A DNA stretch of 64,000 nt from Pseudomonas syringae CC1557 (GTDB lineage: Bacteria > Pseudomonadota > Gammaproteobacteria > Pseudomonadales > Pseudomonadaceae). Location: assembly GCF_000452705.1 (NCBI RefSeq), contig NZ_CP007014.1:1674001-1738000 (forward strand), written 5' to 3'. Under the pieces are notes generated by a model. The model was not told where the DNA came from. It saw nothing but the letters and a program-made list of their open reading frames with translations, and did not search any database. Both the position numbers and the translations under genes were made by a program. Each line of letters starts with the position of its first letter. Within the stretch, counting starts at the first letter, position 1. Shown here one piece after another: positions 34,395-48,145 of the stretch.

Positions 34395-34407
34395 GGAATC
34401 GTGAGCC

Positions 34408-36000
34408 ATGCGTATCTCGACTACCCAGTTCTACGAAGCCACGAACGCCAATTATCAGCGCAACTATGCAAACCTCAACAAGACCAGCGAAGAGGTTTCC
34501 AGCGGTATCAAGCTCAATACGGCGAGCGACGATCCGGTGGGCTCAGCCCGGGTACTGCAACTGGCTCAGCAGAACTCCATGCTGACCCAGTACGCGGCCA
34601 ACATAGGAACGATCAACACCAACGTGGTCAGCACCGAGACCGCATTGACCAGCATCATCGATACCATGCAGTCTGCTCGTGAAGAGATCATATCGGCGTC
34701 CAACGGCGTCAATACCGACTCTGAACGTCTCACCAAGGCTCAGTCGCTCAAACAGTATCAGGGGCAGCTTCTGGCGCTCATGAACAGCAAGGATCCTAAT
34801 GGCCAATATATATTGGCCGGTTCCAAGTCCTCGACGCCGCCTTACTCGCTGAACGCCGATGGTTTTTACAGCTACAAGGGCGATCAGACCAGCGTCAACC
34901 TGGCGGTAGGCGATGGTCTGGTAATGGCCAGTAACACCACGGGCTACGAGGCGTTCGAGCAGTCGGTCAACAGCACGCGCACGTCTGCGACACTGATTTC
35001 CCCGGCGACCGATGATGGCAAGATCGGCCTGAGTGCCGGCCAGGTGACGTCGACTCCTACCTATAACTCGAGCTATCAGGCGGGCGAACCTTACACACTG
35101 ACCTTCCTCAGCGGTACGCAATTCAAGATCACCGATGCCACCGGCACCGATGTGAGCTCCGACGCGTCGTCTGCCGGCAAGTTCGGCAACAGCACGTTCG
35201 AGGCGCAGACGTTTACCTTTCGCGGTGTCGAAATGACCCTCAACGTTAACCTGCCAGCGGCTGACAGAGTGTCGGAAGCCACGGCTGATGCTGCACTGAC
35301 CAATCGCAGTTATCAACTGTCTTCGACGCCAGACAGCGTGTCGACGTCGCGAAGTGCCGGTAACACCTCTACCGCCAACATCAGCAGCTCTACCGTGGGT
35401 AACACCGCAGCTGACCGGACGGCGTTCAATAATACCTTCCCTACCGGCGGCGCCATTCTCAAGTTCACCAGCGCTACCGACTACGATCTGTTTGCGTCAC
35501 CCTTGACCAGCAGCAGTAAACCGGTGTCCAGTGGCACGATGAGCGGCTCTACGGCCAACGCCTCCGGGGTCAATTTCAACCTCAGCGGTACACCTGCCGC
35601 CGGTGATCAGTTTATCGTGGAGTCTGGTACTCACCAGAACGAGAACATCCTCAACACACTGACGGCGGCGATCAAAGCCTTGTCGACGCCGGTTGACGGA
35701 GATCTGGTGGCGACGCAAAAGATGAAGGCGTCACTGGACTCTGCGCTGGGCAACATCACCAGCGGTATCGCGCAGGCTTCTACCGCACGTGCCAATGGCG
35801 GCGCGCGCCAGCTTGCTGCGAGTGCCCAGGGGACCACTAACGAGCTGCTCAAAGCCAATAATACAATTGAGCAGGGCACTTACGTGAATGCGGACATCGT
35901 CGAGGCGACCACTCGCCTGACGCTGCAGAAAACCATGCTGGATGCTTCCCAGCAGGTCTTTACCATGCTGTCCAAGTTGAACCTGTTCAGTCAGCTTTGA
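34408..36000 (+). CDS. flgL: hook-filament junction protein FlgL (HAP3)
   Basis: The 530-residue protein has flagellin-like ends: MRISTTQFYEATNANYQRNY, SSGIKLNTASDDPVGSARVL at the start and RLTLQKTMLDASQQVFTMLS at the end. It is much longer than enteric FlgL (~317 residues), with an enlarged Ser/Thr-rich centre (residues ~190-400). FlgL forms the second junction ring under the filament and is exported with FlgN. It is the last structural gene before the glycosylation island. Confidence 0.95.
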   Translation: MRISTTQFYEATNANYQRNYANLNKTSEEVSSGIKLNTASDDPVGSARVLQLAQQNSMLTQYAANIGTINTNVVSTETALTSIIDTMQSAREEIISASNGVNTDSERLTKAQSLKQYQGQLLALMNSKDPNGQYILAGSKSSTPPYSLNADGFYSYKGDQTSVNLAVGDGLVMASNTTGYEAFEQSVNSTRTSATLISPATDDGKIGLSAGQVTSTPTYNSSYQAGEPYTLTFLSGTQFKITDATGTDVSSDASSAGKFGNSTFEAQTFTFRGVEMTLNVNLPAADRVSEATADAALTNRSYQLSSTPDSVSTSRSAGNTSTANISSSTVGNTAADRTAFNNTFPTGGAILKFTSATDYDLFASPLTSSSKPVSSGTMSGSTANASGVNFNLSGTPAAGDQFIVESGTHQNENILNTLTAAIKALSTPVDGDLVATQKMKASLDSALGNITSGIAQASTARANGGARQLAASAQGTTNELLKANNTIEQGTYVNADIVEATTRLTLQKTMLDASQQVFTMLSKLNLFSQL

Positions 36001-36088: not shown

Positions 36089-39000
36089 GTGAATTCAGCC
36101 CCTCTTGTCAGTATCGTCATTCCCGCTCTCAACCCTCGCTTTTTCCGCGCCGCGTTGCAAAGTGCGCTGGACCAGGTTTACGACAATCTCGAAATCGTCG
36201 TCTGTGACGATTGCCGTACCGATGAGATCAAAACGATTTTTGACGAGCTGATCCCTTCGGACAGTGATTGTGCGCGTTATGTGGACAACCCTCGGCGCCT
36301 GGGTTTTCAAGGGAATCTGCTCAAGTGTCTGGAAGAGGCGAGCGGCGAGTACATCAAGTTTCTCTGCGATGACGACCGTCTTTACACCTATTGCGTTGCG
36401 CATCAGGCGCAGACCCTTGATACGTACAAGGATGTTCAACTGGTTGTCAGCAAACGCCATCTGGTGGACATCGATGACTATGTACTGCCGGCGCGCATGG
36501 AAAACGTCGGGCTGGTGCCATACGACGCGGTGTTCAAAGGCGAGGATATGCTGGCGATTTTCGAGCGCACGCCGCGCAATTATCTGGGGGGGTTCAGCGG
36601 CGCGCTGATGCGCCGTGCCGACGTGCTGGAATACCTGCCGTCCCTCGCTGTGCCAGGGCAGGGCTTTGTCGCATTGCTGGATTTCACCTTGTTCATCTGC
36701 CTGCTGCGACGTGGGAACCTGGTTGTACTGAACAATGTCGAGAGCATTGAGCGTCTGTACCCGGGGCGCCTCAGCAGTCAGCCAGACATGCTTCAAAAAG
36801 CCACCACCGAATGGGGCTGGTTGAACGAAATGCTCAAGGCACGCAGTGGCGAGGACGCACCTGCTCAGGGCTGGGTGCGTTTCCTGCCATTGCGCAGGGC
36901 GATGGAAGAACCGCGCGAGTGGGACGAAGTCGGTCTTTACGGGGTGATGGCCGGTCGTCAAGGCATCATGATGAGCCGAGTCGGCAGCAGCAGTGAAAGC
37001 TATGCCGAGCTGTACGCCGAGTGGCTGTCCTGCCGGCGGTTTTCCGTTCCGCAAAAGAAGCTGCTGGAGCGGCGCATCGGCAGTTGGGCCTGGCAGCCGC
37101 GTATCGTACCGGTGATCATCGATCCTGACGGTGACGCCGAAGGCCTCGATATCACGTTGCGCAGCATTGCCGAACAGGATTACGCCGCCGACTCGGTGGT
37201 GGTGCTCACCAACGCCAGCGTCGATGACCCGCAAGTGCTGCGCTTTTCCCTGCAGCCGGACTGGTCGCAGCAGTTAAACGAAGTCTTGCCGCTGCTGGAC
37301 AGCGCCGACTGGGTTTATCTGCTGCGTGCTGGCGACCGGCTGACGCAGCCCGCGCTGCTGGTACTGGCTGAACGTATCGCCCAGCATTCCGGGCTGTTGT
37401 GTATCTACAGCGACGAAGGGGCGCTGGTCGATGACGAATCCAGAGAGCCGATTTTCAAACCCGGTTTCAATCTGGATCTTCTGCGCGCCTATCCCTATGT
37501 CGGGCGCACGCTGGCCTTCGAACGTCGCAATCTGCTGGACATGGGCGGTTTCGATCCGGCCCATGACGAACTGGCTCCGCACGATGTCATCTGGCGTCTG
37601 GTCGAGGGTGCCGGGCCGCAGACCATCGAGCACATCGCCGAAGTGCAGGTCGAATCCCGCCTGGCGTTTGCCGAGTGGTTGTCACTGCCTTGCGTCATTG
37701 AACACAACGAGTCGGTGGTAGCGGCCCACCTGACACGTATCGGCAGGGAGCATGTGATTCATCACGATCAACTGCCGCTGCTGAACCGCATCGAGTACGT
37801 TCACCCGTCGCAGCCTCTGGTGTCGATCATCATCACCGCCAGGGATCAGTTGGGCGCTCTGGAGCGTTGCGTCGACAGCCTGCTCAGCAACACGACCTAC
37901 CCGAATTACGAGGTCTTGATCGTCGACAACGCCAGCGAGGGCGCAGAGGCCCAGGCATGGTTCGCGGCAATGGGCCAGCTGGGCAGCGACAAGCTGCGCA
38001 TTTTCTCGTTGTCTGACGCCGGCAGCCAAGCTTCGGCCCAGAACCATGCTGCGCGGCAAGCAAGGGGCGACTACCTACTGATGCTCAGCCCGCATGCCAT
38101 TATTCATCAGGCCGACTGGCTGCAGGGGCTGGTCAGTCATGCTCAGCGCCCGGAAGTCGGCATCGTCGGACCACGTATTCTCAGCCCTCAAGGCACTATT
38201 CTGTACGCAGGCATGGTGATGGGCATGGATGGTCTGGCCGGGCGGCCCTTCATCAACTTTCATGCGGGCGCGCGCGGCTATATGCAGCGTCTGCAACTGA
38301 CGCAAAACTGGAGTGCGGTCAGCGGCAATTGCCTGATAGTGCGCAAAGAAGTATTCGACGCTGTGGGCGAGATGGAGGCCGCGACCTTTACTCAGGGCCT
38401 GCAGGATCTGGACCTTTGCCTGCGTGTCGGGCGCGAGGGTTACCTGATCGTCGGGACACCCGATTCTGCACTGGTACTGTCAGAGCCTGCTGCCGCTGAA
38501 CGCAGCGAGGCATCTCGTCAGGCGCTTGATAACGAGCAGAAATCATTCTTCCAGAAATGGCTGCCGAAAATGGCCAGTGATCCGGCGTACAACCCCAACC
38601 TGCATCTCAACGAAACGCTGTCGTTCGCTCTTAACCCTGGTCTGCTGGTGGGCTGGGATCCGTTCTGCAGTCGTCATCTGCCTTCCATTCTCGGCATGGC
38701 GGTCAACTCTTCGGCAGTTGGGCATTACCGGGTCAGCCAGCCACTGCTGGAGCTGATGGCCGCCGGGCGGGTAGTTGGTCATATGACCTATGAGACCGCA
38801 TCGCCGGTTGAGATAGAGCGCCAGTCTCCCGACGTGATCGTCTTTCAGGGCCGCTATACCGAAGCCAAGGTTCCGGATATCGAGCTGGCAAAGAACTATT
38901 CGAATGCCATGCGTATTTTCGAGCTTGACGATTACATTGCCGATGTACCCGAGCGCAACGAGCACAAGCGCAACATGCCTGACAATATCGGCGCCATGCT

Positions 39001-39664
39001 GCGCAAGGGGATAGGCCTATGTGACCGTGTGGTGGTGTCGACACATCCGCTGGCCGAGGTGCTGTCGAGCATGCACAGCGATATCCGAGTGGTGCCGAAC
39101 ATGTTGGCGACCCATCTGTGGAGCAACCTTAGGAGTCAGCGCCGCAGCTCCGGCAAGCCGCGTATCGGCTGGGGTGGGGGCACCAGCCATCGGGGCGACC
39201 TGGAGCTGATTGTCGATGTGGTGCGTGAGCTGGCCGATGAGGTGGAGTGGGTGTTTTTCGGCATGTGCCCGGATATTCTCAAGCCCTTCATTCACGAATT
39301 TCATACTGCGGTCAGCCTCAAGACCTACCCGGCCAAGCTGGCCAGCCTGAATCTCGATCTGGCACTGGCGCCGCTGGAATTTCACATCTTCAACGACTGC
39401 AAGAGTAATCTCAGGCTGCTGGAATACGGCGCGTGCGGCTACCCGGTCATTTGTTCCGACACTGAGGCTTACCGTGGCCATCTGCCGGCCACCCGCGTGA
39501 ACACTAACAGTCCGGACGAGTGGTTGCAGGCGATTCGCATGCACCTCTCCGATCCTGATGCCAGTTACCGTATGGGCGATGAACTGCGCGAGACGGTGTT
39601 GCGCGACTTCATGCTGCGCGGTGAAAACCTGCAATATTGGGCCAACGGCTGGCTGCCGGACTGA
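36089..39664 (+). CDS. fgt1: flagellin glycosyltransferase Fgt1 (multidomain GT2/GT-B-like)
   Basis: The GTG start gives 1191 residues. Domains in order are: a GT2 (GT-A) domain at ~5-240 (SIVIPALNPRFFRAALQSAL, acidic metal site CDDDR); a GT2-like domain at ~335-560 with no clear DxD; a third GT2 domain at ~575-840 (VSIIITARDQLGALERCVDS); and a C-terminal GT-B-like domain at ~855-1191 (YGACGYPVICSDTEAYR). In P. syringae the gene between flgL and fliC encodes Fgt1, which is needed to glycosylate flagellin with rhamnose and modified viosamine. Residues ~335-840 are paralogous to the C-terminal half of Fgt2. The protein is cytoplasmic, with no membrane segments. Confidence 0.88.
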   Translation: MNSAPLVSIVIPALNPRFFRAALQSALDQVYDNLEIVVCDDCRTDEIKTIFDELIPSDSDCARYVDNPRRLGFQGNLLKCLEEASGEYIKFLCDDDRLYTYCVAHQAQTLDTYKDVQLVVSKRHLVDIDDYVLPARMENVGLVPYDAVFKGEDMLAIFERTPRNYLGGFSGALMRRADVLEYLPSLAVPGQGFVALLDFTLFICLLRRGNLVVLNNVESIERLYPGRLSSQPDMLQKATTEWGWLNEMLKARSGEDAPAQGWVRFLPLRRAMEEPREWDEVGLYGVMAGRQGIMMSRVGSSSESYAELYAEWLSCRRFSVPQKKLLERRIGSWAWQPRIVPVIIDPDGDAEGLDITLRSIAEQDYAADSVVVLTNASVDDPQVLRFSLQPDWSQQLNEVLPLLDSADWVYLLRAGDRLTQPALLVLAERIAQHSGLLCIYSDEGALVDDESREPIFKPGFNLDLLRAYPYVGRTLAFERRNLLDMGGFDPAHDELAPHDVIWRLVEGAGPQTIEHIAEVQVESRLAFAEWLSLPCVIEHNESVVAAHLTRIGREHVIHHDQLPLLNRIEYVHPSQPLVSIIITARDQLGALERCVDSLLSNTTYPNYEVLIVDNASEGAEAQAWFAAMGQLGSDKLRIFSLSDAGSQASAQNHAARQARGDYLLMLSPHAIIHQADWLQGLVSHAQRPEVGIVGPRILSPQGTILYAGMVMGMDGLAGRPFINFHAGARGYMQRLQLTQNWSAVSGNCLIVRKEVFDAVGEMEAATFTQGLQDLDLCLRVGREGYLIVGTPDSALVLSEPAAAERSEASRQALDNEQKSFFQKWLPKMASDPAYNPNLHLNETLSFALNPGLLVGWDPFCSRHLPSILGMAVNSSAVGHYRVSQPLLELMAAGRVVGHMTYETASPVEIERQSPDVIVFQGRYTEAKVPDIELAKNYSNAMRIFELDDYIADVPERNEHKRNMPDNIGAMLRKGIGLCDRVVVSTHPLAEVLSSMHSDIRVVPNMLATHLWSNLRSQRRSSGKPRIGWGGGTSHRGDLELIVDVVRELADEVEWVFFGMCPDILKPFIHEFHTAVSLKTYPAKLASLNLDLALAPLEFHIFNDCKSNLRLLEYGACGYPVICSDTEAYRGHLPATRVNTNSPDEWLQAIRMHLSDPDASYRMGDELRETVLRDFMLRGENLQYWANGWLPD

Positions 39665-39681
39665 TCCGATCGTTTAAACAT

Positions 39682-39706
39682 GCGCCAGCAGATTGCTCGC
39701 TGGCGC
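39682..39706 (+). other. hairpin in the fgt1-fgt2 spacer
   Basis: The arms GCGCCAGC / GCTGGCGC flank a 9-base loop, without a T-run. A second imperfect hairpin (CTTCAA...TTGAAG) follows at about 39722-39747. These could tune read-through into fgt2. No promoter was recognised in the 111-base spacer. Confidence 0.5.
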
Positions 39707-39775
39707 CACGTTACGCTCTTGCTTCAACGCCCGCTGCGGGTTGAAGGCGCACTCGATTCGTTATAAGGAAAGATC

Positions 39776-42685
39776 ATGCAAAACCATTCCGGAAATGAAC
39801 ACACCGCTTTGAATCAGCGTCTGACTCTGCTGTTGGTGGCCAAGGACCAGCCGGATTTCCTGCGCCGCGCCTTGAAGTATTACAGCGACTTCCCCTGCAG
39901 CGTGGTAGTGGTCGACGCATCCGCTCAGCCGGATGCCGGCATCGCGGGCACCTCAGGCCTGTTTTACGTGCAACACGCAGCGCTGACCGATGCCAGCCTC
40001 AGTGCCAGGATTGCCGAGGGCCTCAAGCATGTCACCACACCGTTTGTGATTCCGGCGCCGGTCGACAGCTTCCTGCTGGCAAGCGCATTGAATGCCGCCT
40101 TGAGCTTTCTTGAAGCCAATCAGACTTACGGTGCCTGCCAAGGCTACAGCCTTAGCTATCAGGCCCATGTCGATAAAGTGGATTATTTCCGTCGCGATCG
40201 TAAAACCTGCGAAGACTACGCGTCCGATGACGCTGGCGAGCGGGTGTCGAGTTTCATGAGCCAAGGCCTGTCGTTGCTCAGCGCAGTGACGCGGACTGAA
40301 CTGGCGCAGCAGTGGTTCGCTTCGGTTACCGAAGGCACCGAGTTGCATTGGCAGGAAATCGGTTACATGAGTTATCTGGCGGCGGCTGCTCGCCTGCGCA
40401 TTCTGCCGATTCCGTATGCCCTGCATTTCACGCCGGGCAAGGAAGCAGAGATGCGCCATGGCGCGGGCATCGTCGCTGCGGTCAGGCATGTCGATCCCAA
40501 AGCCAAGGCGACCCGAGAGGCATTTGCCAAACGACTGGTTTCGGTGTTGGGCGACGAATCGGGCTTCGCCGGTACGCAGGGCGTACAGAACATCTTGGCC
40601 GGGCTCGCCGCCATGGCGGAACGTCTCAAGACTGAGGGGTTTCAGGCTGATGAAAAACTCATCAGTGCGGTCTGGAACGTTGCCCTTGAGCAGTCGGACG
40701 CGTTGTTCGAGCCTCGGCAGTTCGTCGAATTGCCGTTTTACAACCAGCCGCTGTTCGACGAACTGGCCCGCATCGAACTCCTGATTCATGTCATGCCGGC
40801 AGGCCGCTTGCAGATGGAGGCGCTTGAAGCGGCTCTGCTCAAGCAAGCCGAGTTGCTGCGTGAGCAAAGCAATCCGGATGCTGAAACCAGACTCAGCCGT
40901 CTGTGGCAGGCCTACGAAACCTACGCGTTCAATCTGGGTGTGGTGCAGAGCCTCGCCACGGAATTGCTCGCTAGCAAAGACGACAAACACAGCGAAGAGC
41001 AGCTTGCGCTTGTTTCTGCCTGGGGCCAGCGTCTGCAGGCCGCATCCGGTTTCGACAACGGCCGGCTGCTCGACGGCATGGCCTCTGGCCGACTGCTCAA
41101 CTGGCTCGATGCGCGTAATCCGACCCCCGACGCCGTCAAGCAGATCACCGAAAAGCTCGCCAGTGCACCGACCGGCTCGCAGATCGGTATTTTGCTGCTG
41201 GACCTGGACGCAGACATGATGAAGCTCCAGGCAACGTTCGACAGCCTGATCAACAGCTATTATAAGGCGTTCAAAGTGGTGGTTTTCACGACGGGAGAGT
41301 TACCGGCAGTCACCACACTGCACAACACCCTGCATTTCGTGAAGGTCACTGAAAGCAATTACGTCGACAAGATCAACCAGATCATCAAGCAGTCCCCCAG
41401 CGACTGGCTGATGCTGGCCCAGGCCGGTGAAGAGTTCACCCGCAGCGGCCTGTTGCTGGCCAGTGCCGAGCTGGTTGACGCGGCTGAGTGCCGTGCGGTG
41501 GCGGTCGACGAGATTCAGCGTCAATCCAACGGCACTCTGGCCCCAGTGTTCCGCCCTGGTTTCAACTTGGACCTGTTGCAAAGTCTGCCCGCTCTGATGG
41601 CGCGCCATTGGCTGATCCGCCGCGATGTGCTGGTGGAGGCGGGCGGCTATTCGCGTGAATTACCCAAGGCGCTCGAATTCGATCTGTTGCTGCGCTTGAT
41701 CGAGCTGGGCGGCATGAGCGGCCTGGCCCACTTGAGCGAGCCGCTGCTGATGTGTGATGCGCCTGCGCTGGAAGACAATCCCGACGAACAGAGAGCGCTC
41801 AAGCGCCATCTTGGCAAGCGGGGTTATCAGGCTGAAGTCACTTCGGTACAGCCCGGCACTTACAAGATCGATTACCGCCACACCCATCGGCCGCAGGTCT
41901 CGATTCTGCTGCACAGTCAGGACAACCTGCCGGAGCTGCAACGCTGCCTGCAAAGTATCCTGCAACGCACCCGCTATCAGCGTTACGAAGTACTGATCGG
42001 CGACAACGCCAGTACGTCAGCCGAACTGTCGACCTGGCTCGACAGACAGGAACAGGTTTCGGGTCGCGTGCGTGTGTTCCGCGCCGAGCAGCGCATGAGT
42101 TCGGGGGCTTTGTGTAATCTGATCAGTCAGGAAGCCACTGGCGAATACCTTGTCTTGGTGGATGCGCAAAGCCAGATCGTCAATGTCGGCTGGATCGAAT
42201 CCCTGCTCAACCAGGCGCAACGTCCGGAAGTGGGCGTGGTCGGCGTCAAGCTTGTTGATGGTGAAGGCGCGGTGACTCAGGCCGGGCTGATTCTGGGCCT
42301 CAATGGCGGCGTGGGCTCTGGCTTTGTCGGCGAGCCGAAGACCTCTACCGGTTATATGCAGCGCCTGGTGGTCGAGCAGAATTACTCTGCCGTGTCATCG
42401 GCGTGCCTGATGATTGCCAAGGAGCTGTATGACGCAATCGGCGGGCTGGACGAGGAGGCCTTCGCCGAAGCGCTGGGTGACGTGGACCTGTGTCTCAAGG
42501 CTGCACAGGCTGGTTACCTGACCGTGTGGACCCCGCATGTTCAGGTGGTGCATTCCGGTGTGGTAAAGGTTTCCGAGCAGGCGCGTACCGCGCTGATGGA
42601 CAAATGGTCTGCGCAATTCGCGCAGGATGAAGCCTACAACGCTAATCTCGATCTCAATGGTCGGGGTTTCACCCTGGCTGTTTGA
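39776..42685 (+). CDS. fgt2: flagellin glycosyltransferase Fgt2
   Basis: The 969-residue protein has a TIGR00180-like glycosyltransferase N-terminus (residues ~10-260: LTLLLVAKDQPDFLRRALKY, CSVVVVDAS). A helical middle section and two GT2-type segments follow (~470-690 and ~700-960: VSILLHSQDNLPELQRCLQS, YEVLIGDNAS, PEVGVVGVKL). It corresponds to the second gene of the P. syringae flagellin glycosylation island, which extends the glycan on flagellin serines. Its C-terminal half matches the middle of Fgt1 (for example FRPGFNLDLL / FKPGFNLDLL and GYMQRL in both). An RBS (AAGGAAAG) precedes the ATG. Confidence 0.87.
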   Translation: MQNHSGNEHTALNQRLTLLLVAKDQPDFLRRALKYYSDFPCSVVVVDASAQPDAGIAGTSGLFYVQHAALTDASLSARIAEGLKHVTTPFVIPAPVDSFLLASALNAALSFLEANQTYGACQGYSLSYQAHVDKVDYFRRDRKTCEDYASDDAGERVSSFMSQGLSLLSAVTRTELAQQWFASVTEGTELHWQEIGYMSYLAAAARLRILPIPYALHFTPGKEAEMRHGAGIVAAVRHVDPKAKATREAFAKRLVSVLGDESGFAGTQGVQNILAGLAAMAERLKTEGFQADEKLISAVWNVALEQSDALFEPRQFVELPFYNQPLFDELARIELLIHVMPAGRLQMEALEAALLKQAELLREQSNPDAETRLSRLWQAYETYAFNLGVVQSLATELLASKDDKHSEEQLALVSAWGQRLQAASGFDNGRLLDGMASGRLLNWLDARNPTPDAVKQITEKLASAPTGSQIGILLLDLDADMMKLQATFDSLINSYYKAFKVVVFTTGELPAVTTLHNTLHFVKVTESNYVDKINQIIKQSPSDWLMLAQAGEEFTRSGLLLASAELVDAAECRAVAVDEIQRQSNGTLAPVFRPGFNLDLLQSLPALMARHWLIRRDVLVEAGGYSRELPKALEFDLLLRLIELGGMSGLAHLSEPLLMCDAPALEDNPDEQRALKRHLGKRGYQAEVTSVQPGTYKIDYRHTHRPQVSILLHSQDNLPELQRCLQSILQRTRYQRYEVLIGDNASTSAELSTWLDRQEQVSGRVRVFRAEQRMSSGALCNLISQEATGEYLVLVDAQSQIVNVGWIESLLNQAQRPEVGVVGVKLVDGEGAVTQAGLILGLNGGVGSGFVGEPKTSTGYMQRLVVEQNYSAVSSACLMIAKELYDAIGGLDEEAFAEALGDVDLCLKAAQAGYLTVWTPHVQVVHSGVVKVSEQARTALMDKWSAQFAQDEAYNANLDLNGRGFTLAV

Positions 42686-42702
42686 GTCGCCAGCATCCGT
42701 AA

Positions 42703-42735
42703 AACCGGTCGCATCGCGGCCGGTTCGCTGCTTTT
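42703..42735 (+). terminator. terminator after fgt2
   Basis: The stem AACCGGTCGC / GCGGCCGGTT (one G-T pair) has a three-base loop, and a short T-run follows at 42732-42735. Confidence 0.75.
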
Positions 42736-42990
42736 AAAATCTCTGCGCAGCGGGCTGAATGGCTGGCTCCAGTGCGCTTTTCCACGCCGCAAATTATCGC
42801 AAAGCATGCAAACGGGAGTGACCTGCGGGTCATAACGTGCATCTTCACTGTATTGTGTTACAGAGAGCGACATGCGCCTGACTTGCTTTAACGTGCCAAG
42901 CGCCCTGAAAATGTCTGTAAATCACCTCTATTCGGTAGCGCCCTGATTTTTGTCAGGACGGAAAATGACCTGTTTACTCATCGGGAAGCC
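42736..42990. other. intergenic stretch before the KAS III gene
   Basis: With the terminator this is a 305-base gap. No clear FliA or RpoN element was found. The AT-rich 42845-42930 section probably holds a promoter for the KAS III gene. Open frames on the minus strand here look random. Confidence 0.4.
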
Positions 42991-43920
42991 ATGATGATTG
43001 GCATTAAAAGCATAGCGAGTTACGTGCCTGTTGCAGGCGTTGATAACTACGCTCAAGGCGCCAGGTTCGGCAAGGATGAAGAATTCATCCTTGGGAAAAT
43101 TGGCTCCACGTTCCTGCCGCGCAAAGACGCTGGCCAGGAAACCTCGGATCTGTGTGTTGAAGCGGCCAATACGCTGTTTGCCAACAACCCGCAGCTCAAG
43201 CGCGAAAGTATTGATGTGCTGATCGTCGTCACCCAGAACGGTGACGAGGAAGGCTTGCCGCATACCGCTGCCATCGTCCAGGACAAGCTTGGCCTGTCTA
43301 CCAACGTTGCTGCGTTTGATATTTCGCTGGGCTGCTCCGGCTATGTATACGGTATCTATGCGATCAAGGGCTTCATGGAGGCAGCAGGCCTTAAGAATGG
43401 GCTGCTGATCACCGCCGATCCGTATTCGAAAATTGTCGACCCGGAAGACCGCAACACCACCATGCTGTTCGGTGACGCAGCTACTGCCACATGGATGGGC
43501 GAGGACGCCGACTGGCAATTGGGCAAGGCGAAGTTCGGCACCGACGGTTCCGGCGCACCGCACCTCAAGGTCAGCAACGGCGTGTTTTTCATGAACGGCC
43601 GTCAGGTATTCAATTTTGCACTGCTGAAAGTCCCTGCGCATCTGCATGAGCTGTTGGCCGAGTCAGACCTGACGCCTGACGATATTGATGCCTTCTGTAT
43701 TCACCAGGGCAGTGCCGCCATCGTCGACGCCGTTGCGCGCCGCTTCGAAGACAAACCCGAGAAGTTTCTCAAGGACATGGTCGAGACCGGCAATACCGTG
43801 TCGTCCAGCATTCCGTTGCTGATTGAAAAACACGTACTGGGCTCTTCGTGGAAGCGGGTTGCCTTGAGCGGTTTTGGTGTGGGGCTGTCCTGGGGGTCTG
43901 CCATTATCTATAAAGGCTGA
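42991..43920 (+). CDS. 3-oxoacyl-ACP synthase III (KAS III, FabH-like) of the flagellin glycosylation island
   Basis: The 309-residue protein (start at 42991 or the adjacent ATG at 42994, after GGGAAG) has the thiolase fold and the KAS III catalytic triad: Cys115 in ISLGCSGYVYG, His in FCIHQG and Asn in VETGNTVSSS. KAS III enzymes condense a primer acyl-CoA with malonyl-ACP. This gene is the third of the P. syringae glycosylation island. It has been proposed to help make the 3-hydroxybutyryl group on the viosamine sugar of the flagellin glycan. It has its own leader and a terminator after it. Confidence 0.85.
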   Translation: MMIGIKSIASYVPVAGVDNYAQGARFGKDEEFILGKIGSTFLPRKDAGQETSDLCVEAANTLFANNPQLKRESIDVLIVVTQNGDEEGLPHTAAIVQDKLGLSTNVAAFDISLGCSGYVYGIYAIKGFMEAAGLKNGLLITADPYSKIVDPEDRNTTMLFGDAATATWMGEDADWQLGKAKFGTDGSGAPHLKVSNGVFFMNGRQVFNFALLKVPAHLHELLAESDLTPDDIDAFCIHQGSAAIVDAVARRFEDKPEKFLKDMVETGNTVSSSIPLLIEKHVLGSSWKRVALSGFGVGLSWGSAIIYKG

Positions 43921-43940
43921 GTTAATACAGCCTGACTAAG

Positions 43941-43972
43941 AGCGCCTGTGGATTTATTCTCCAGGCGCTTTT
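43941..43972 (+). terminator. terminator after the KAS III gene
   Basis: The stem AGCGCCTG / CAGGCGCT has a 13-base loop and a four-base T-run, 20 bases after the stop. Confidence 0.85.
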
Positions 43973-44141
43973 AAATTAAACAGTGATCCACGTCACACTT
44001 TGCACTTCGCTATGCGACACCCTCGCTTGACCCCACTTCCTGTTGTTGATGAATTTCTCTCTTTCCAGTCGCGTGATTATGCCCCAATCCCTTGTTCTAT
44101 AAGGGGTGGCCGTGTGATGGCAAAATATTTAAAAAAAACAC

Positions 44142-44168
44142 TCAAGCAACCTGCCATTGCGACGATAA
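44142..44168 (+). promoter_or_regulatory. FliA (sigma-28) promoter of fliC
   Basis: The element reads TCAAGCAA, 11 bases, GACGATAA, against the Pseudomonas form TCAAGTTT-N11-GCCGATAA, with correct spacing. It lies 82 bases before the fliC ATG. The rest of the 330-base gap from 43921 is AT-rich and holds the KAS III terminator; short open frames there are not convincing. Confidence 0.85.
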
Positions 44169-44250
44169 CTATTACGAAGGTTCTCTAGGCACACCCGGCA
44201 GCTTGCAGGGGCCGGAAGCCACGTAGTACCAAACCACCGAGGAATTCATC

Positions 44251-45099
44251 ATGGCTTTAACAGTAAACACCAACGTAACATCGTTGAACGTCCAGAAGAA
44301 CCTGGGCCGAGCTTCTGACGCACTGTCGAAATCGATGGAACGTCTGTCCACCGGTAAGAAAATCAACACCGCCTCGGATGATGCTGGTGGCAGCGTAACG
44401 CAAACCAAGATCACCTCGCAGATCCGCGGCCAGACAGTGGCGATGAAAAACGCCAACGACGGTATCTCGATCGTGCAGACCACTGAAGGTGCACTGCAAG
44501 AGTCGGTCAGCATTCTGCAGCGTATGCGTGAACTGGCTGTTCAGTCGCGAAACGACAGTAACAGTCCGGAAGGTCGTGATGCGCTGAACAAAGAATTCGC
44601 GCAGATGAGCCTGGAAATAACCCGTATCGCTGATAGTACTAACCTTAACGGCAAGAAGCTGCTCGACGGTTCGGCCAGCACCATGACTTTCCAGGTGGGT
44701 GCAGACTCTGGCGCTGCGAACCAGATTTCTGTCACTCTGAGCGCCAGCTTTGACGCAAACACTATGGGTGTAGGTTCGGCAATCACCATCGTCGGTTCCG
44801 ACAGTGCCGCTGCAGAGACCAACTTCTCCGCCGCCATCGCTGCGATCGACTCGGCTCTGTCGACGATCAACAACACCCGTTCCGATCTGGGTGCTGTACA
44901 AAACCGTTTGACCAGCACCATCTCCAACCTGCAGAACATCAACGCCAACGCCAGTCAGGCACTGAGCCGTATCGAAGATACCGACTTCGCTGCTGAAACT
45001 GCACAGTTGACCAAGCAACAGACTCTGCAACAGGCTTCCACCTCTGTTCTGGCGCAGGCTAACCAGCTGCCATCCGCTGTACTGAAACTGCTTCAGTAA
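44251..45099 (+). CDS. fliC: flagellin FliC with divergent flg22 region
   Basis: The 282-residue protein matches P. syringae FliC in length and in its ends (MALTVNTNVTSLNVQKNLGR; TKQQTLQQASTSVLAQANQL). D0/D1 helices occupy residues 1-130 and 205-282. Serines are present at 143, 164, 176, 183, 193 and 201, the six positions glycosylated in P. syringae, fitting the fgt1/fgt2 island. The flg22 segment (residues 30-51) is strongly altered: E30, T34, K36, T40, S42, G46, and S48-V49-T50-Q51 replacing the usual LQIA end. The flgII-28 region (84-111) also differs, with V86-S87 and P106-E107-G108. The TLR5-contact stretch LQRMRELA is intact. It is driven by FliA, with a terminator after it. Confidence 0.97.
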   Translation: MALTVNTNVTSLNVQKNLGRASDALSKSMERLSTGKKINTASDDAGGSVTQTKITSQIRGQTVAMKNANDGISIVQTTEGALQESVSILQRMRELAVQSRNDSNSPEGRDALNKEFAQMSLEITRIADSTNLNGKKLLDGSASTMTFQVGADSGAANQISVTLSASFDANTMGVGSAITIVGSDSAAAETNFSAAIAAIDSALSTINNTRSDLGAVQNRLTSTISNLQNINANASQALSRIEDTDFAAETAQLTKQQTLQQASTSVLAQANQLPSAVLKLLQ

Positions 45100-45116
45100 T
45101 ATCGGCTTGAGTTTTA

Positions 45117-45151
45117 GCGGGGGAGTGCTTAACAGTGCTCTCTCGCTTTTT
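45117..45151 (+). terminator. terminator after fliC
   Basis: A 12-bp stem including G-T pairs (GCGGGGGAGTGC / GTGCTCTCTCGC) with a six-base loop is followed by five T, 18 bases after the stop. Confidence 0.85.
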
Positions 45152-45170
45152 ACTTTCAGAGGTGATGGTC

Positions 45171-45569
45171 ATGGATATGAGTGTGAAGTTGACCTTGTCT
45201 TATCCGGCCGTTCAACCGGCAGGTCAGGCCGCTGTGGCCGACCCGTCGGTCGATAAGCCTGCCGATGCCCGGCCCGTAGAGCGTGTTGCTGCCACGGCGG
45301 AAAGTAAAGGTTCTGATCTGCCTAAGGATAAAGAAGGTTTTCCGGACGACGCCAAGGTCAAGGCGGCCGCCGAGGATATCCAGAAATTCTTTCATACGGT
45401 GAATCGTAATCTTGAGTTTTCTATCGACGAAGACTCTGGCAAAGTCATCGTCAAGGTGATTGCAAGCGACTCCGGTGAAGTAGTCAGACAGATTCCCAAT
45501 GCAGAAATCCTGAAACTGGCCGATAGCCTGAGTGACGCGAACAGTTTGTTGTTCCGCGCCAAGGCCTGA
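45171..45569 (+). CDS. flaG: flagellar protein FlaG
   Basis: The ATG at 45171 follows AGAGGTGA and gives 132 residues. The N-terminal ~65 residues are low-complexity and charged. The C-terminal FlaG domain contains FFHTVNRNLEFSIDEDSGKV and VVRQIPNAEILKLADSL. FlaG proteins affect filament length or stability in pseudomonads and are usually found between fliC and fliD, as here. Confidence 0.93.
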   Translation: MDMSVKLTLSYPAVQPAGQAAVADPSVDKPADARPVERVAATAESKGSDLPKDKEGFPDDAKVKAAAEDIQKFFHTVNRNLEFSIDEDSGKVIVKVIASDSGEVVRQIPNAEILKLADSLSDANSLLFRAKA

Positions 45570-45652
45570 TCGCCGGTACGGTATTTGTTGTCGGGTTACG
45601 AGCCTTTTGAAAAGGCAGTGCGGCCCGCGACATTTTTGAAGGGAGAGGCACC

Positions 45653-47134
45653 ATGGCAAGTCCGATTGTACCTACCACGGGCCTGGGTTCAGGTCTGCAA
45701 ATCACTGCAATTGTCGAAGGGCTGGTGGCGGCTGAAAGAGCGCCGAAACAGACCCAGATTGACCAGCAGACATCTGCCACCAAAGCGTCGCTGTCAGGTG
45801 TCAGTCAGCTGACGTCCGCCTTGGCTGCGTTCCAGAAGACTCTGGATACGCTCAGTAGCAGCACGCCTGCGTTTCAGGGCTTCGCCGCGACGTCATCCAA
45901 CGAAACGATGGTCAAGGCCACGGCGAGTAACACGGCCGTCAATGGCACCTATGCCATTAACGTCACTAATCTGGCTTCTGCTTCGAAGGTCTCCACAGCT
46001 GCGCTTAATTCGACGCAAGCCAGTGCCATTCCGAGTGGTACTCTGGAAATCACTCAGAATGGCACTACCCAGAAGGTCGTGATTGGTCAGACTTCCACCC
46101 TGCAAGAGGTGCGCGACCAGATCAACTCGTCGCTGCAGGGCAAGGGTATTACTGCCAACATCATCAATGACAACAACGGTTCAAGGCTGGTGTTCAGTTC
46201 GACCACCACGGGCGCTGGCAGTGATATCTCTGTCAAGGGCGCAGCTGGTCAGGAAGCGTTGAACATTGACGGTACCAAGCTGATGAAGGACACCAGCACG
46301 GCGACCGACGCAAGTGGTAACCCGATTCCTGGTGCGGGAGCGATTATCGATGTGGCCAAGGATGCAGTGTTCTCTATTGATGGTCTGAGTCTGACCAGTA
46401 AGACGAACACTGTGAGTACCGCCATTTCCGGTCTTTCATTTGATCTGATCGCGCCCAGTGTAACTGCTGCGTCAACGACCACTATCACGGTCGCCACAAA
46501 TACCGAAGGCTTGAAGACTTCGCTGCAGTCTTTCGTCGACTCTTACAATACCTTGGTCACGCTGGTCAGTACTTTGACCAAGGGCTCTGTCGGTACCGAC
46601 GGTAAATTTACCCCTGCGTCCCTGACCGGCGACGCTACTCCGCGTGGCTTGCTGGCAGCGGTGCGTGACCAGATTGCTACCGCCACATCGAATTCCGGTC
46701 TCGGCTCTCTCTCACAGTTGGGGATCAAGACGCAGCAAGCCGACGGCAAGCTCTCACTGGATACAGTCCAGTTAACCTCGGCACTTGTTGACAAAAAACT
46801 CGGCGGGCAGATCCAGGCGTTGTTTAACGGCACTGGTGCCAAAAAAGCTGACGGTACGCTTGTGGATGGCGGTTTGGTCGCACGCATGAGTAAAGCGCTC
46901 GAACCTTACACCAAGGCCGACGGCATTCTGGCCACCAAGACGACCAGTCTGAACAAGGTGAACGCAAGGCTGGCCAAGGATCAGGAAGCGCTGGACCTGC
47001 GTATCACCTCGTTGACTGACGTGTTGAAGGCGAAGTACAACAAGATGGATCTGCTGGTTGGCCAGCTCAGAGCGTCGAGCAGTAGCATCACGTCGATCTT
47101 CGAGGCGATGAACGCTCAGAAAAACGCTTCGTAA
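45653..47134 (+). CDS. fliD: filament cap protein FliD
   Basis: The 493-residue protein shows the FliD N-terminal domain (SPIVPTTGLGSGLQITAIVEGLVAAERAP), a Ser/Thr-rich variable centre (VTNLASASKVSTAALNSTQA, residues ~70-280) and the C-terminal FliD domain (SLQSFVDSYNTLVTLVSTLT to SSSSITSIFEAMNAQKNAS). FliD forms the pentameric or hexameric cap on the filament tip and can contribute to adhesion. It starts after a GGGAGAGG ribosome-binding site and ends at a strong terminator. Confidence 0.96.
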   Translation: MASPIVPTTGLGSGLQITAIVEGLVAAERAPKQTQIDQQTSATKASLSGVSQLTSALAAFQKTLDTLSSSTPAFQGFAATSSNETMVKATASNTAVNGTYAINVTNLASASKVSTAALNSTQASAIPSGTLEITQNGTTQKVVIGQTSTLQEVRDQINSSLQGKGITANIINDNNGSRLVFSSTTTGAGSDISVKGAAGQEALNIDGTKLMKDTSTATDASGNPIPGAGAIIDVAKDAVFSIDGLSLTSKTNTVSTAISGLSFDLIAPSVTAASTTTITVATNTEGLKTSLQSFVDSYNTLVTLVSTLTKGSVGTDGKFTPASLTGDATPRGLLAAVRDQIATATSNSGLGSLSQLGIKTQQADGKLSLDTVQLTSALVDKKLGGQIQALFNGTGAKKADGTLVDGGLVARMSKALEPYTKADGILATKTTSLNKVNARLAKDQEALDLRITSLTDVLKAKYNKMDLLVGQLRASSSSITSIFEAMNAQKNAS

Positions 47135-47152
47135 GCTTTTTTACCGAAGTGC

Positions 47153-47186
47153 CAAGAACCCGACCCTGCGTCGGGTTCTTGCTTTT
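47153..47186 (+). terminator. terminator after fliD
   Basis: The perfect 12-bp stem CAAGAACCCGAC / GTCGGGTTCTTG with a five-base loop is followed by CTTTT. Confidence 0.93.
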
Positions 47187-47190
47187 GGGC

Positions 47191-47217
47191 TAAAGTTTAG
47201 GCGCTGTACGTCGATAG
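47191..47217 (+). promoter_or_regulatory. FliA (sigma-28) promoter of fliS-fliT
   Basis: The element TAAAGTTT, 11 bases, GTCGATAG matches the sigma-28 consensus with two changes in the -10 region and exact spacing. It lies just after the fliD terminator and 40 bases before fliS. Confidence 0.78.
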
Positions 47218-47256
47218 CCTGAGTATCAAACATTCTGAGTGCGTCTCGAGGTCATT

Positions 47257-47646
47257 ATGAATCCGATGTTAGCGTTGCGGCAGTATCAAAAAATCGGCGC
47301 CCAGGCTCAGGCTTCGGAAGCCAGCCCTCATCGTCTGGTGCAGATGCTGATGGAGGGTGGCCTCGACCGCATCGCTCAGGCCAAAGGCGCAATGGCGCGC
47401 AACGACTTCGCCAACAAGGGTGTGTTTATCAGCAAGGCCATCGGCATTGTCGGCGGGTTGCGCGAAGGGCTGAACCTTGAGGGCACGCCCAGCGAAAGCC
47501 TGGTCAGGCAGGACAGCCTCTATCACTACATGATGGCGCGCCTGGCCGAGGCCAGTGCCCGTAACGATCAGAAGATTCTTGATGAGGTCTCAGGCCTGCT
47601 GATCACTGTCAAGGAAGGCTGGGACGCGATCGGCACCCTGCAATAA
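47257..47646 (+). CDS. fliS: flagellin export chaperone FliS
   Basis: The ATG at 47257 follows GAGG and gives 129 residues. The helical FliS fold is marked by LRQYQKIGAQAQASEASPHRLVQMLMEGGLDRI (the conserved Tyr and the PHxLvxMLxxG motif) and SLYHYMMARLAEASARN. FliS binds the flagellin C-terminus to prevent early polymerisation and guides it to FlhA. It is followed by fliT. Confidence 0.94.
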   Translation: MNPMLALRQYQKIGAQAQASEASPHRLVQMLMEGGLDRIAQAKGAMARNDFANKGVFISKAIGIVGGLREGLNLEGTPSESLVRQDSLYHYMMARLAEASARNDQKILDEVSGLLITVKEGWDAIGTLQ

Positions 47647-47671
47647 TCTGCTGCTTTCGAGGAGAATAAAA

Positions 47672-47968
47672 ATGAGTGCTGCGCTCAAGCGTATCGAAGA
47701 AACTCGTGAAGCCTTGGTAGGTGCACTGGCCGAGCGCGACTGGGAGGCGATCGGCAAGCTTGATCTGGCCTGTCGTGAGTGTGTCGACGCGGCTGTGGGC
47801 GAGCCACCTGCCGACGAACCGGCATTACGCAGCAACCTCGAAGAGTTGCTTGGCGTTTACAGACAATTAATTGATGTTGCAACCGGCGAGCGTCAAGCCG
47901 TTGTCGATGAAATGACGCAAATCCAGAATGCCAAAAATGCGACGAAGGTATACCATCTGTTCGGTTAA
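47672..47968 (+). CDS. fliT: FliT-like flagellar chaperone
   Basis: The 98-residue, largely helical protein begins 25 bases after fliS, with GAGGAG upstream. Its sequence (KRIEETREALVGALAERDWEAIGKLD, ELLGVYRQLIDVATGERQAV) fits the short FliT-type proteins found after fliS in pseudomonads, which are thought to chaperone the cap protein FliD. The similarity to enteric FliT is weak, so the exact client is inferred from position. Confidence 0.82.
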   Translation: MSAALKRIEETREALVGALAERDWEAIGKLDLACRECVDAAVGEPPADEPALRSNLEELLGVYRQLIDVATGERQAVVDEMTQIQNAKNATKVYHLFG

Positions 47969-48145
47969 CGTTTAATTGTCATTTTATTGTCGGACGAGAT
48001 TTTCGCCATAAATTTGACTGTGTTCGTTTTTTTGACTTAACTAGTGATGTTTGCCATTTTCTGGCGTCTCAAGGTCTATATCTGCTGAGATTGCCAAGTT
48101 GTCCCAATTTGTGGGCATTGAGTTGACTAGGGAAGTTGCTATTGC

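What the first reader, a model, noticed from the sequence alone, without database searches (positions are those of the whole stretch)
44338..44403. Flagellin with a strongly divergent flg22 epitope in an otherwise typical P. syringae FliC
Codons 30-51 of fliC differ from the canonical P. syringae flg22 at ten positions: E30, T34, K36, T40, S42, G46, S48, V49, T50, Q51. The C-terminal end, where G47-LQIA normally contacts FLS2 and BAK1, becomes G47-SVTQ. Flanking helices are typical (TKITSQIRG follows directly), so the change is focused. This suggests selection against plant FLS2 recognition or replacement of this segment by recombination.
Basis: partly seen in the sequence, partly recalled or inferred. 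Interest (0 to 1): 0.82.

Follow-up and report, generated by a model that had tools for sequence, protein, structure and literature searches.

The report
Known flg22 variant on exchanged block
This plant-associated Pseudomonas carries a natural version of its flagellar filament protein whose immune-recognised stretch is strongly altered; the same version occurs in Pseudomonas cannabina, where it is reported not to trigger the usual plant alarm, and it seems to have moved between species inside a block of flagellar genes.

Summary
fliC (44251-45099) is intact and the only flagellin found in the genome. Its flg22 segment (44338-44403), ERLSTGKKINTASDDAGGSVTQ, differs at 10 of 22 positions from the commonest TRLSSGLKINSAKDDAAGLQIA. 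It is no base-calling error: 6 of the 120 best database flagellins (one is the window's own) carry the identical peptide, and P. floridensis has a two-residue variant despite heavy silent divergence.

The peptide is a shared allele, present in P. cannabina-labelled proteins. Papers report the flg22 of P. cannabina pv. alisalensis ES4326 as inactive and antagonistic; I did not see its letters.

'Segment replacement' must be enlarged. Against the sister species, breakpoints lie at 44155-44237 (5' leader) and 47818-47825 (in fliT): a block of about 3.6 kb, fliC-flaG-fliD-fliS, is exchanged. Trees of fliC and fliD conflict with gyrB+rpoD, and fliC still does so without codons 27-52. Within fliC, fixed amino-acid changes concentrate in flg22 (10 of 22 codons against 16 of 260).

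Best reading: an old, constrained, FLS2-evading flg22 haplotype that spreads between P. syringae-complex species by recombination of a filament-gene block. Both ingredients were already reported in general terms; the map is the new part.

The parts
44251..45099 (+). fliC, flagellin, 282 aa
   Evidence: ORF; Flagellin_N and Flagellin_C over cut-off
44338..44403 (+). Variant flg22 segment, codons 30-51, ERLSTGKKINTASDDAGGSVTQ
   Evidence: Sequence; alignments; fixed-difference count
44500..44583 (+). flgII-28 region, codons 84-111, with 3 of 28 codons fixed different from 11 canonical flagellins
   Evidence: Alignment; epitope name from PMC3161960 passages
44155..44237 (.). Left breakpoint interval of the exchanged block (5' leader of fliC); a one-base insertion shared with G384 at 44200 narrows it to 44155-44200
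   Evidence: Segmentation; leader alignment
44200..47820 (+). Exchanged block: fliC, flaG, fliD, fliS and the first half of fliT
   Evidence: 586 of 646 informative sites match G384 rather than sister species G313; identity steps
45168..45569 (+). flaG
   Evidence: PF03646
45653..47134 (+). fliD, filament cap
   Evidence: FliD_N and FliD_C; tree conflict with core genes
47254..47646 (+). fliS, flagellin chaperone
   Evidence: PF02561
47672..47968 (+). fliT-like; carries the right breakpoint
   Evidence: PF05400 at 29.4 bits, just under its cut-off 29.5
47818..47825 (.). Right breakpoint interval
   Evidence: Segmentation against G384/G313
41899..44155 (+). Native stretch upstream: end of fgt2, FabH-like gene and fliC promoter region, matching sister species G313
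   Evidence: Only 36 of 232 informative sites match G384

Best explanation
The window carries an intact flagellin gene with an old, non-canonical flg22 haplotype shared by a few P. syringae-complex species. The haplotype travels between species by homologous recombination of a block that runs from the fliC leader to fliT. SHOWN: the peptide, its carriers, its amino-acid conservation despite silent divergence, the tree conflicts, and the breakpoints against the sister species. INFERRED: the peptide keeps D14, D15 and G18 but loses L19 (co-receptor BAK1 docking) and I21 (also the P2 residue for release by the plant protease SBT5.2). The plant would then release it poorly and would not assemble an active FLS2-BAK1 complex, so a filament is made while the FLS2 alarm is weak or blocked. 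Exchanging flagellin, cap and chaperone genes together would keep the parts of one filament matched (inference). The most likely source for the window lineage is a P. cannabina-like donor.
For: Identical peptide in P0001-P0006 (6 of 120 best hits, P0001 being the window's own), two changes in P. floridensis and in pv. cilantro. Motif in 3 of 398 sampled genus genomes. The core tree gyrB+rpoD pairs the window with G313 (100/100) and puts P. floridensis with G295 and G335 (100/100); fliC, fliD and the joined fliC+flaG+fliD group the four carriers (100/100) and, in fliC and the joined genes, put the window with G384 (100/99). AU tests reject window+G313 (fliC p 1.2e-8; fliC without codons 27-52 p 7.9e-6; fliD p 9.3e-38) and P. 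floridensis with G295, G335, G066. Four-segment mosaic against G384/G313, gain 209.8 against 0.0 as the best of 20 shuffles. Constraint: window against P. floridensis in codons 30-51, 11 silent changes over 16.5 silent sites but 2 over 49.5 replacement sites. Non-elicitation of the ES4326 allele: passages of PMC5999195, PMC7387336, PMC9919041. Roles of D14, D15, G18, L19, I21: PMC12281300 passages; P2 Ile of SBT5.2: PMC11069567 passages.
Against: No plant response was measured. The ES4326 peptide letters were not seen: Clarke et al. 2013 is not held, and the link rests on P. cannabina-labelled protein P0004 and its identical twin P0003. Direction of transfer is uncertain: window-G384 dS in fliC and flaG (0.10, 0.09) is below gyrB, rpoD and the FabH-like gene (0.30, 0.17, 0.41), but fliD (0.28) is not clearly lower, and fliC may have low dS through codon bias. 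The triplet window/P. floridensis/G295 showed no breakpoint (one segment, 1067 of 1560 sites), so that transfer rests on trees alone. The FabH-like flank supports window+G313 only weakly (72/85).
Confidence: 0.75

Rival explanations
1. The variant block was ancestral to the whole group window/G313/G326/G384, and sister species G313 replaced it with a canonical block; the window simply kept it. The link to P. floridensis would be an older exchange.
For: Three of the four species of that core clade carry the variant. G313 itself looks like a recipient: its fliC has dS 0.13 to G192 where gyrB and rpoD have 0.38 and 0.28, and its fliD groups with G056 (100/100).
Against: In fliC and the joined genes the window is closer to G384 than G384 is to its core sister G326 (AU p 0.002 and 0.003 against G384+G326), and the one-base insertion at 44200 is shared by window and G384 only among five genomes.
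Confidence: 0.3
2. The divergence was selected by something other than FLS2, such as filament mechanics, flagellum-binding phages or the flagellin glycan, and loss of plant recognition is a by-product.
For: Fixed changes lie outside flg22 too (16 of 260 codons); the flagellin glycosyltransferase genes upstream are also mosaic; PMC9919041 passages say that substitutions in the first 17 residues mainly hit motility.
Against: The fixed changes are most concentrated in flg22 and include residues 19 and 21, used for BAK1 docking and for release (PMC12281300 passages).
Confidence: 0.25
3. Short gene conversion or convergent mutation of codons 30-51 alone.
For: The amino-acid difference is concentrated there.
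Against: fliC without codons 27-52 and fliD alone still group the carriers and reject the core relations; silent divergence from G192 in these codons (dS 0.55) lies within the 0.10-0.99 range of the other stretches.
Confidence: 0.03
4. Sequencing or assembly error.
For: None found.
Against: Identical or nearly identical peptides in separate records with different silent bases.
Confidence: 0.01

Closest known systems
flg22 allele of Pseudomonas cannabina pv. alisalensis ES4326 (Clarke et al. 2013, as cited in PMC5999195, PMC7387336, PMC9919041; passages seen)
   Same: P0003 and the P. cannabina-labelled P0004 carry the window's flg22 letter for letter
   Different: The window's gyrB+rpoD is closest to G313, not to G384, which has the P0003/P0004 flagellin; FliC differs at 6 of 282 residues from P0003, one of them in flgII-28. 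The ES4326 sequence itself was not seen
Between-phylogroup recombination of fliC in the P. syringae complex (PMC6317194, passage)
   Same: fliC/flg22 is named there among positively selected, virulence-associated families that recombine between phylogroups
   Different: Here one exchanged tract is mapped: fliC leader to fliT
Polymorphic flg22 of Ralstonia solanacearum and Agrobacterium tumefaciens (PMC7387336 and PMC12281300 passages)
   Same: Divergence reaches the C-terminal message segment and FLS2 activation is lost
   Different: Distant lineages; taken as independent origin (inference, not tested)
flg22 and flgII-28 variation in P. syringae pv. tomato (PMC3161960 passages)
   Same: Natural fliC variation tied to plant recognition
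   Different: Single substitutions within a clonal lineage there; ten flg22 differences on an exchanged haplotype here

Membership tests
Bacterial flagellin FliC | Flagellin_N and Flagellin_C domains over cut-off, full length | tested here: met
   136.7 and 91.2 bits against cut-offs 26.6 and 23
Bacterial flagellin FliC | Assembles into a motile filament | not testable with these tools
   Only indirect: open gene, few replacement changes among carriers
P. cannabina-type flg22 allele | Same 22-residue peptide as a P. cannabina flagellin | tested here: met
   Identical in P0004, named Flagellin [Pseudomonas cannabina]
P. cannabina-type flg22 allele | Same peptide as strain ES4326, on which the plant tests were done | tested here: inconclusive
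   The passages seen do not print the letters; searches for flg22ES4326, GGSVTQ and STGKKINTA found 0 papers; primary paper not held
P. cannabina-type flg22 allele | Message-segment Leu19 and Ile21 absent, Asp14/Asp15 present | tested here: met
   S19 and T21; D14, D15 and G18 kept
P. cannabina-type flg22 allele | Inactive as elicitor, antagonist of flg22 | not testable with these tools
   Reported for ES4326 (PMC9919041 passage)
Horizontally exchanged flagellar block | Gene trees conflict with core tree | tested here: met
   AU tests
Horizontally exchanged flagellar block | Breakpoints flanked by native sequence | tested here: met
   Segmentation against G384/G313 and G326/G313 (against G326 the last part, 47335-48110, is mixed, 29 of 62); not seen for window/P. 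floridensis/G295

The most novel reading that the evidence does not exclude
The fliC-flaG-fliD-fliS block is an exchangeable filament cassette in the P. syringae complex. Alternative versions, each with its own flg22 type (canonical, cannabina/floridensis, perhaps viridiflava-like), are maintained over long times and swapped whole between species, so that recognition by FLS2 is decided by which cassette a lineage currently holds rather than by stepwise mutation.
Probability: 0.4. Interest if true: 0.55.

Novelty: new member of a known kind. Interest (0 to 1): 0.38.

Why it matters
flg22 is the textbook example of a conserved bacterial signature. Here a strongly altered version is kept under amino-acid constraint in several species and appears to move between them with its neighbouring filament genes. 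That would explain how a ten-residue change in a functionally critical segment can appear at once in a lineage, and it makes the sister pair window/G313 (nearly identical core proteins, different flagellin blocks) a natural comparison for what the block does on plants. It also warns that flg22 type cannot be predicted from species identity in this complex.

Tried and rejected
Sequencing error: rejected. A second flagellin copy with the canonical peptide: not found; the other match at E <= 0.001 is FlgL-like at 30% identity. Convergent change of flg22 in P. floridensis and the cannabina-like species: not favoured, because fliC without codons 27-52 and fliD alone still group them. Short gene conversion of codons 30-51: not favoured.

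The triplet window/P. floridensis/G295 gave one segment, no breakpoint. In one search the downstream G384 columns are empty because my script placed that locus wrongly; I used G313 and G326 there, and for G384 up to 48.2 kb. The McDonald-Kreitman-like table counts codons per group, uses groups that I chose from genomes at hand (4 carriers, 11 canonical; also run with 6 canonical, 10 of 22 against 17 of 260), and ignores recombination; it describes concentration and is no formal proof of positive selection. The clade tests for window+G313, G384+G326 and P. floridensis use groups from the independent core tree; the tests of the four carriers as one clade use a group named from fliC. G066 was left out of the core tree for lack of a full rpoD match (23 of 24 genomes used); G212 lacked flgL in the stretch fetched. 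fliC, fliD and FabH-like trees use 16 genomes, chosen by FliC similarity, so they are not a random sample.

Structure prediction was not run: a model of a well-known fold would not decide recognition. The promoter scan covers sigma-70 types only and found nothing useful at fliC. Two receptor-engineering papers (PMC12364711, PMC12364713) had none of the terms cannabina, ES4326, Pseudomonas syringae or Pcal in the main text. Only 57 loci came from the named species genomes; 2 of them (P. floridensis, pv. cilantro) carry the variant.

Full report
WHAT IS THERE. fliC lies at 44251-45099 on the + strand and encodes a 282-residue flagellin. Codons 30-51 (44338-44403) read ERLSTGKKINTASDDAGGSVTQ. The commonest peptide among the 120 best database flagellins is TRLSSGLKINSAKDDAAGLQIA (51 of 120). 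In the genome (5.81 Mb) the only other match to FliC at E <= 0.001 lies in the FlgL-like ORF, at 30% identity. The neighbours are two long glycosyltransferases (36089-39664, 39776-42685), a FabH-like gene, then flaG, fliD, fliS, a fliT-like ORF (29.4 bits, cut-off 29.5) and fleQ.

IS THE CHANGE FOCUSED. Between four carriers (window; G384; G326, whose fliC and contig length equal those of pv. cilantro 0788_9; P. floridensis) and 11 canonical flagellins, 10 of 22 codons in flg22 are fixed amino-acid differences, against 16 of 260 elsewhere (Fisher p = 2.4e-6). In flg22 there are 10 fixed replacement and no fixed silent codons, against 7 replacement and 23 silent polymorphic codons counted per group. 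So flg22 is the hot spot, but the haplotype spans the gene: pairwise differences from four canonical flagellins are 44-55 residues. Against G192, replacement and silent rates in codons 30-51 are about equal (dN 0.52, dS 0.55), while the other seven stretches of the gene have dN 0.01-0.14.

WHO ELSE HAS IT. Six of the 120 listed proteins (P0001-P0006; P0001 is the window's own) have the identical peptide, and three (P0007-P0009; P0009 is P. floridensis) have a two-residue variant. Pv. cilantro 0788_9 differs at two residues. A degenerate DNA pattern for DDAGGS[V/I]TQ and a few near forms hit 3 of 398 sampled genus genomes: the window's own, G326 and G384. G384's FliC equals P0003 and P0004, the latter named Pseudomonas cannabina. 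Between the window and P. floridensis, codons 30-51 have 11 silent changes over 16.5 silent sites but only 2 over 49.5 replacement sites. The variant peptide is therefore old and conserved, not a fresh mutation or an error.

HOW IT GOT THERE. Core genes gyrB+rpoD (23 genomes) pair the window with G313 (100/100), then with G384+G326 (100/100); P. floridensis sits apart with G295 and G335 (100/100). Yet G313 has a canonical flagellin. In fliC, fliD and the joined fliC+flaG+fliD, the four carriers form one clade (100/100). The window is sister to G384 (100/99) in fliC and in the joined genes; in fliD that fork among the three is unresolved. Holding window+G313 together is rejected (fliC p 1.2e-8, fliD p 9.3e-38, joined p 1.3e-32), as is P. 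floridensis with G295, G335 and G066 (fliC p 4.6e-46, fliD p 6.7e-73). Dropping codons 27-52 of fliC changes nothing (p 7.9e-6 and 2.5e-48). The reverse holds too: the core genes and the FabH-like gene reject one clade of the four carriers (p 1.9e-64 and 7.9e-8).

BREAKPOINTS. At 1168 sites where G384 and G313 differ and the window agrees with one, the best segmentation has four parts: 40006-41895 (226 of 278 match G384), 41899-44155 (36 of 232), 44237-47818 (586 of 646) and 47825-48110 (1 of 12). The gain was 209.8 against 0.0 as the best of 20 shuffles. Using G326 in place of G384 gives the same first two breakpoints, but a less sharp right end (44237-47289, 479 of 544; then 47335-48110, 29 of 62). 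Identity to G313 falls from 96% to 84% at the start of fliC and returns to 96-98% at 47.8 kb, then stays at 92-99.5% out to 57 kb in 400-base steps. A one-base insertion at 44200 is shared by the window and G384 but not by G313, G326 or G192, so the left breakpoint lies between 44155 and 44200, just around and after a sequence (44141-44168) that resembles a sigma-28 promoter (motif recalled, from no call). The exchanged block is thus the fliC leader to fliT, about 3.6 kb. The window/P. floridensis/G295 triplet showed no breakpoint.

DIRECTION. dS window-G384 is 0.10 in fliC and 0.09 in flaG, against 0.30 in gyrB, 0.17 in rpoD and 0.41 in the FabH-like gene; fliD is 0.28. G384+G326, sisters in the core, are rejected as sisters in fliC without codons 27-52 (p 0.002) and in the joined genes (p 0.003). 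This favours import from a P. cannabina-like donor into the window lineage. G313 looks like a recipient as well: its fliC has dS 0.13 to G192, where gyrB and rpoD have 0.38 and 0.28. I cannot exclude that the variant was ancestral here and that G313 lost it.

HOW IT MOST LIKELY WORKS. From PMC12281300 (passages): residues 1-17 address FLS2 and 18-22 carry the message that docks BAK1; D14, D15, G18 and L19 are conserved in most eliciting peptides; I21 matters for cleavage by SBT5.2. From PMC11069567 (passages): SBT5.2 and SBT1.7 cut after Ala51, Ile50 at P2 being critical for SBT5.2, and also after Asn39 with Ile at P2, which inactivates the epitope. The window keeps D14, D15, G18 and the Ile-Asn of the inactivating site, and has Ser for L19 and Thr for I21 (codon 50). 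Prediction (inference): poor release, poor BAK1 recruitment, possible occupation of FLS2. This agrees with the report that the ES4326 allele is inactive as a PAMP and acts as an antagonist (PMC9919041 passage, citing Clarke et al. 2013) and with statements that its polymorphisms abolish FLS2 recognition (PMC5999195 passage; PMC7387336 passage, names it as a similar case). Its flgII-28 is reported as recognised in tomato, through FLS3 (PMC5999195); the window's flgII-28 differs from that of P0003 by one residue. I did not see the ES4326 letters or the 2013 paper.

NOVELTY. The loss of recognition is known for the P. cannabina ES4326 flg22, and fliC is already named among recombining, positively selected loci of the complex (PMC6317194 passage). 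New here, to the extent of my paper searches (open-licence papers only), are the window lineage as a carrier beside a canonical sister species, the block boundaries, and the contrast between amino-acid constancy and silent divergence. I file it as a new member of a known kind.

Noticed in passing
window 33400-35800 and 38200-41800: Two further mosaic stretches against sister species G313 (flgK/flgL region; end of fgt1 and most of fgt2): in 14 of 15 steps of 400 bases the window is 91-97% identical to G384 but 80-90% to G313. Here G313 may be the recipient.
   Followed up: partly
proteins P0054, P0056, P0057, P0062 and others: A second divergent flg22 type (SRLSSGLKVQNARDNVGVLSTI and near forms) in 16 of the 120 best flagellins; of the 9 whose ids the call printed, 7 bear a name, P. 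viridiflava or P. alliivorans. A third type (QKLSSGKSITSSKDNAAGSQIA) in 2 of 120.
   Followed up: no
L004, L062, L093 (pv. cilantro 0788_9 and G326): fliC of pv. cilantro has N39 to I and S42 to A in the variant peptide, and 8 silent changes over 16.8 silent sites in codons 30-51 against the window (dS 0.75, core genes 0.16-0.26; few sites): fliC may be shuffled even among carriers.
   Followed up: partly
G000:C1:4344863-4346851 and G000:C1:3442668-3444698: The window's genome has two HrcV-type export proteins over the family cut-off, as do G313, G192 and G056, while G384, G326 and P. floridensis have one (7 genomes).
   Followed up: no
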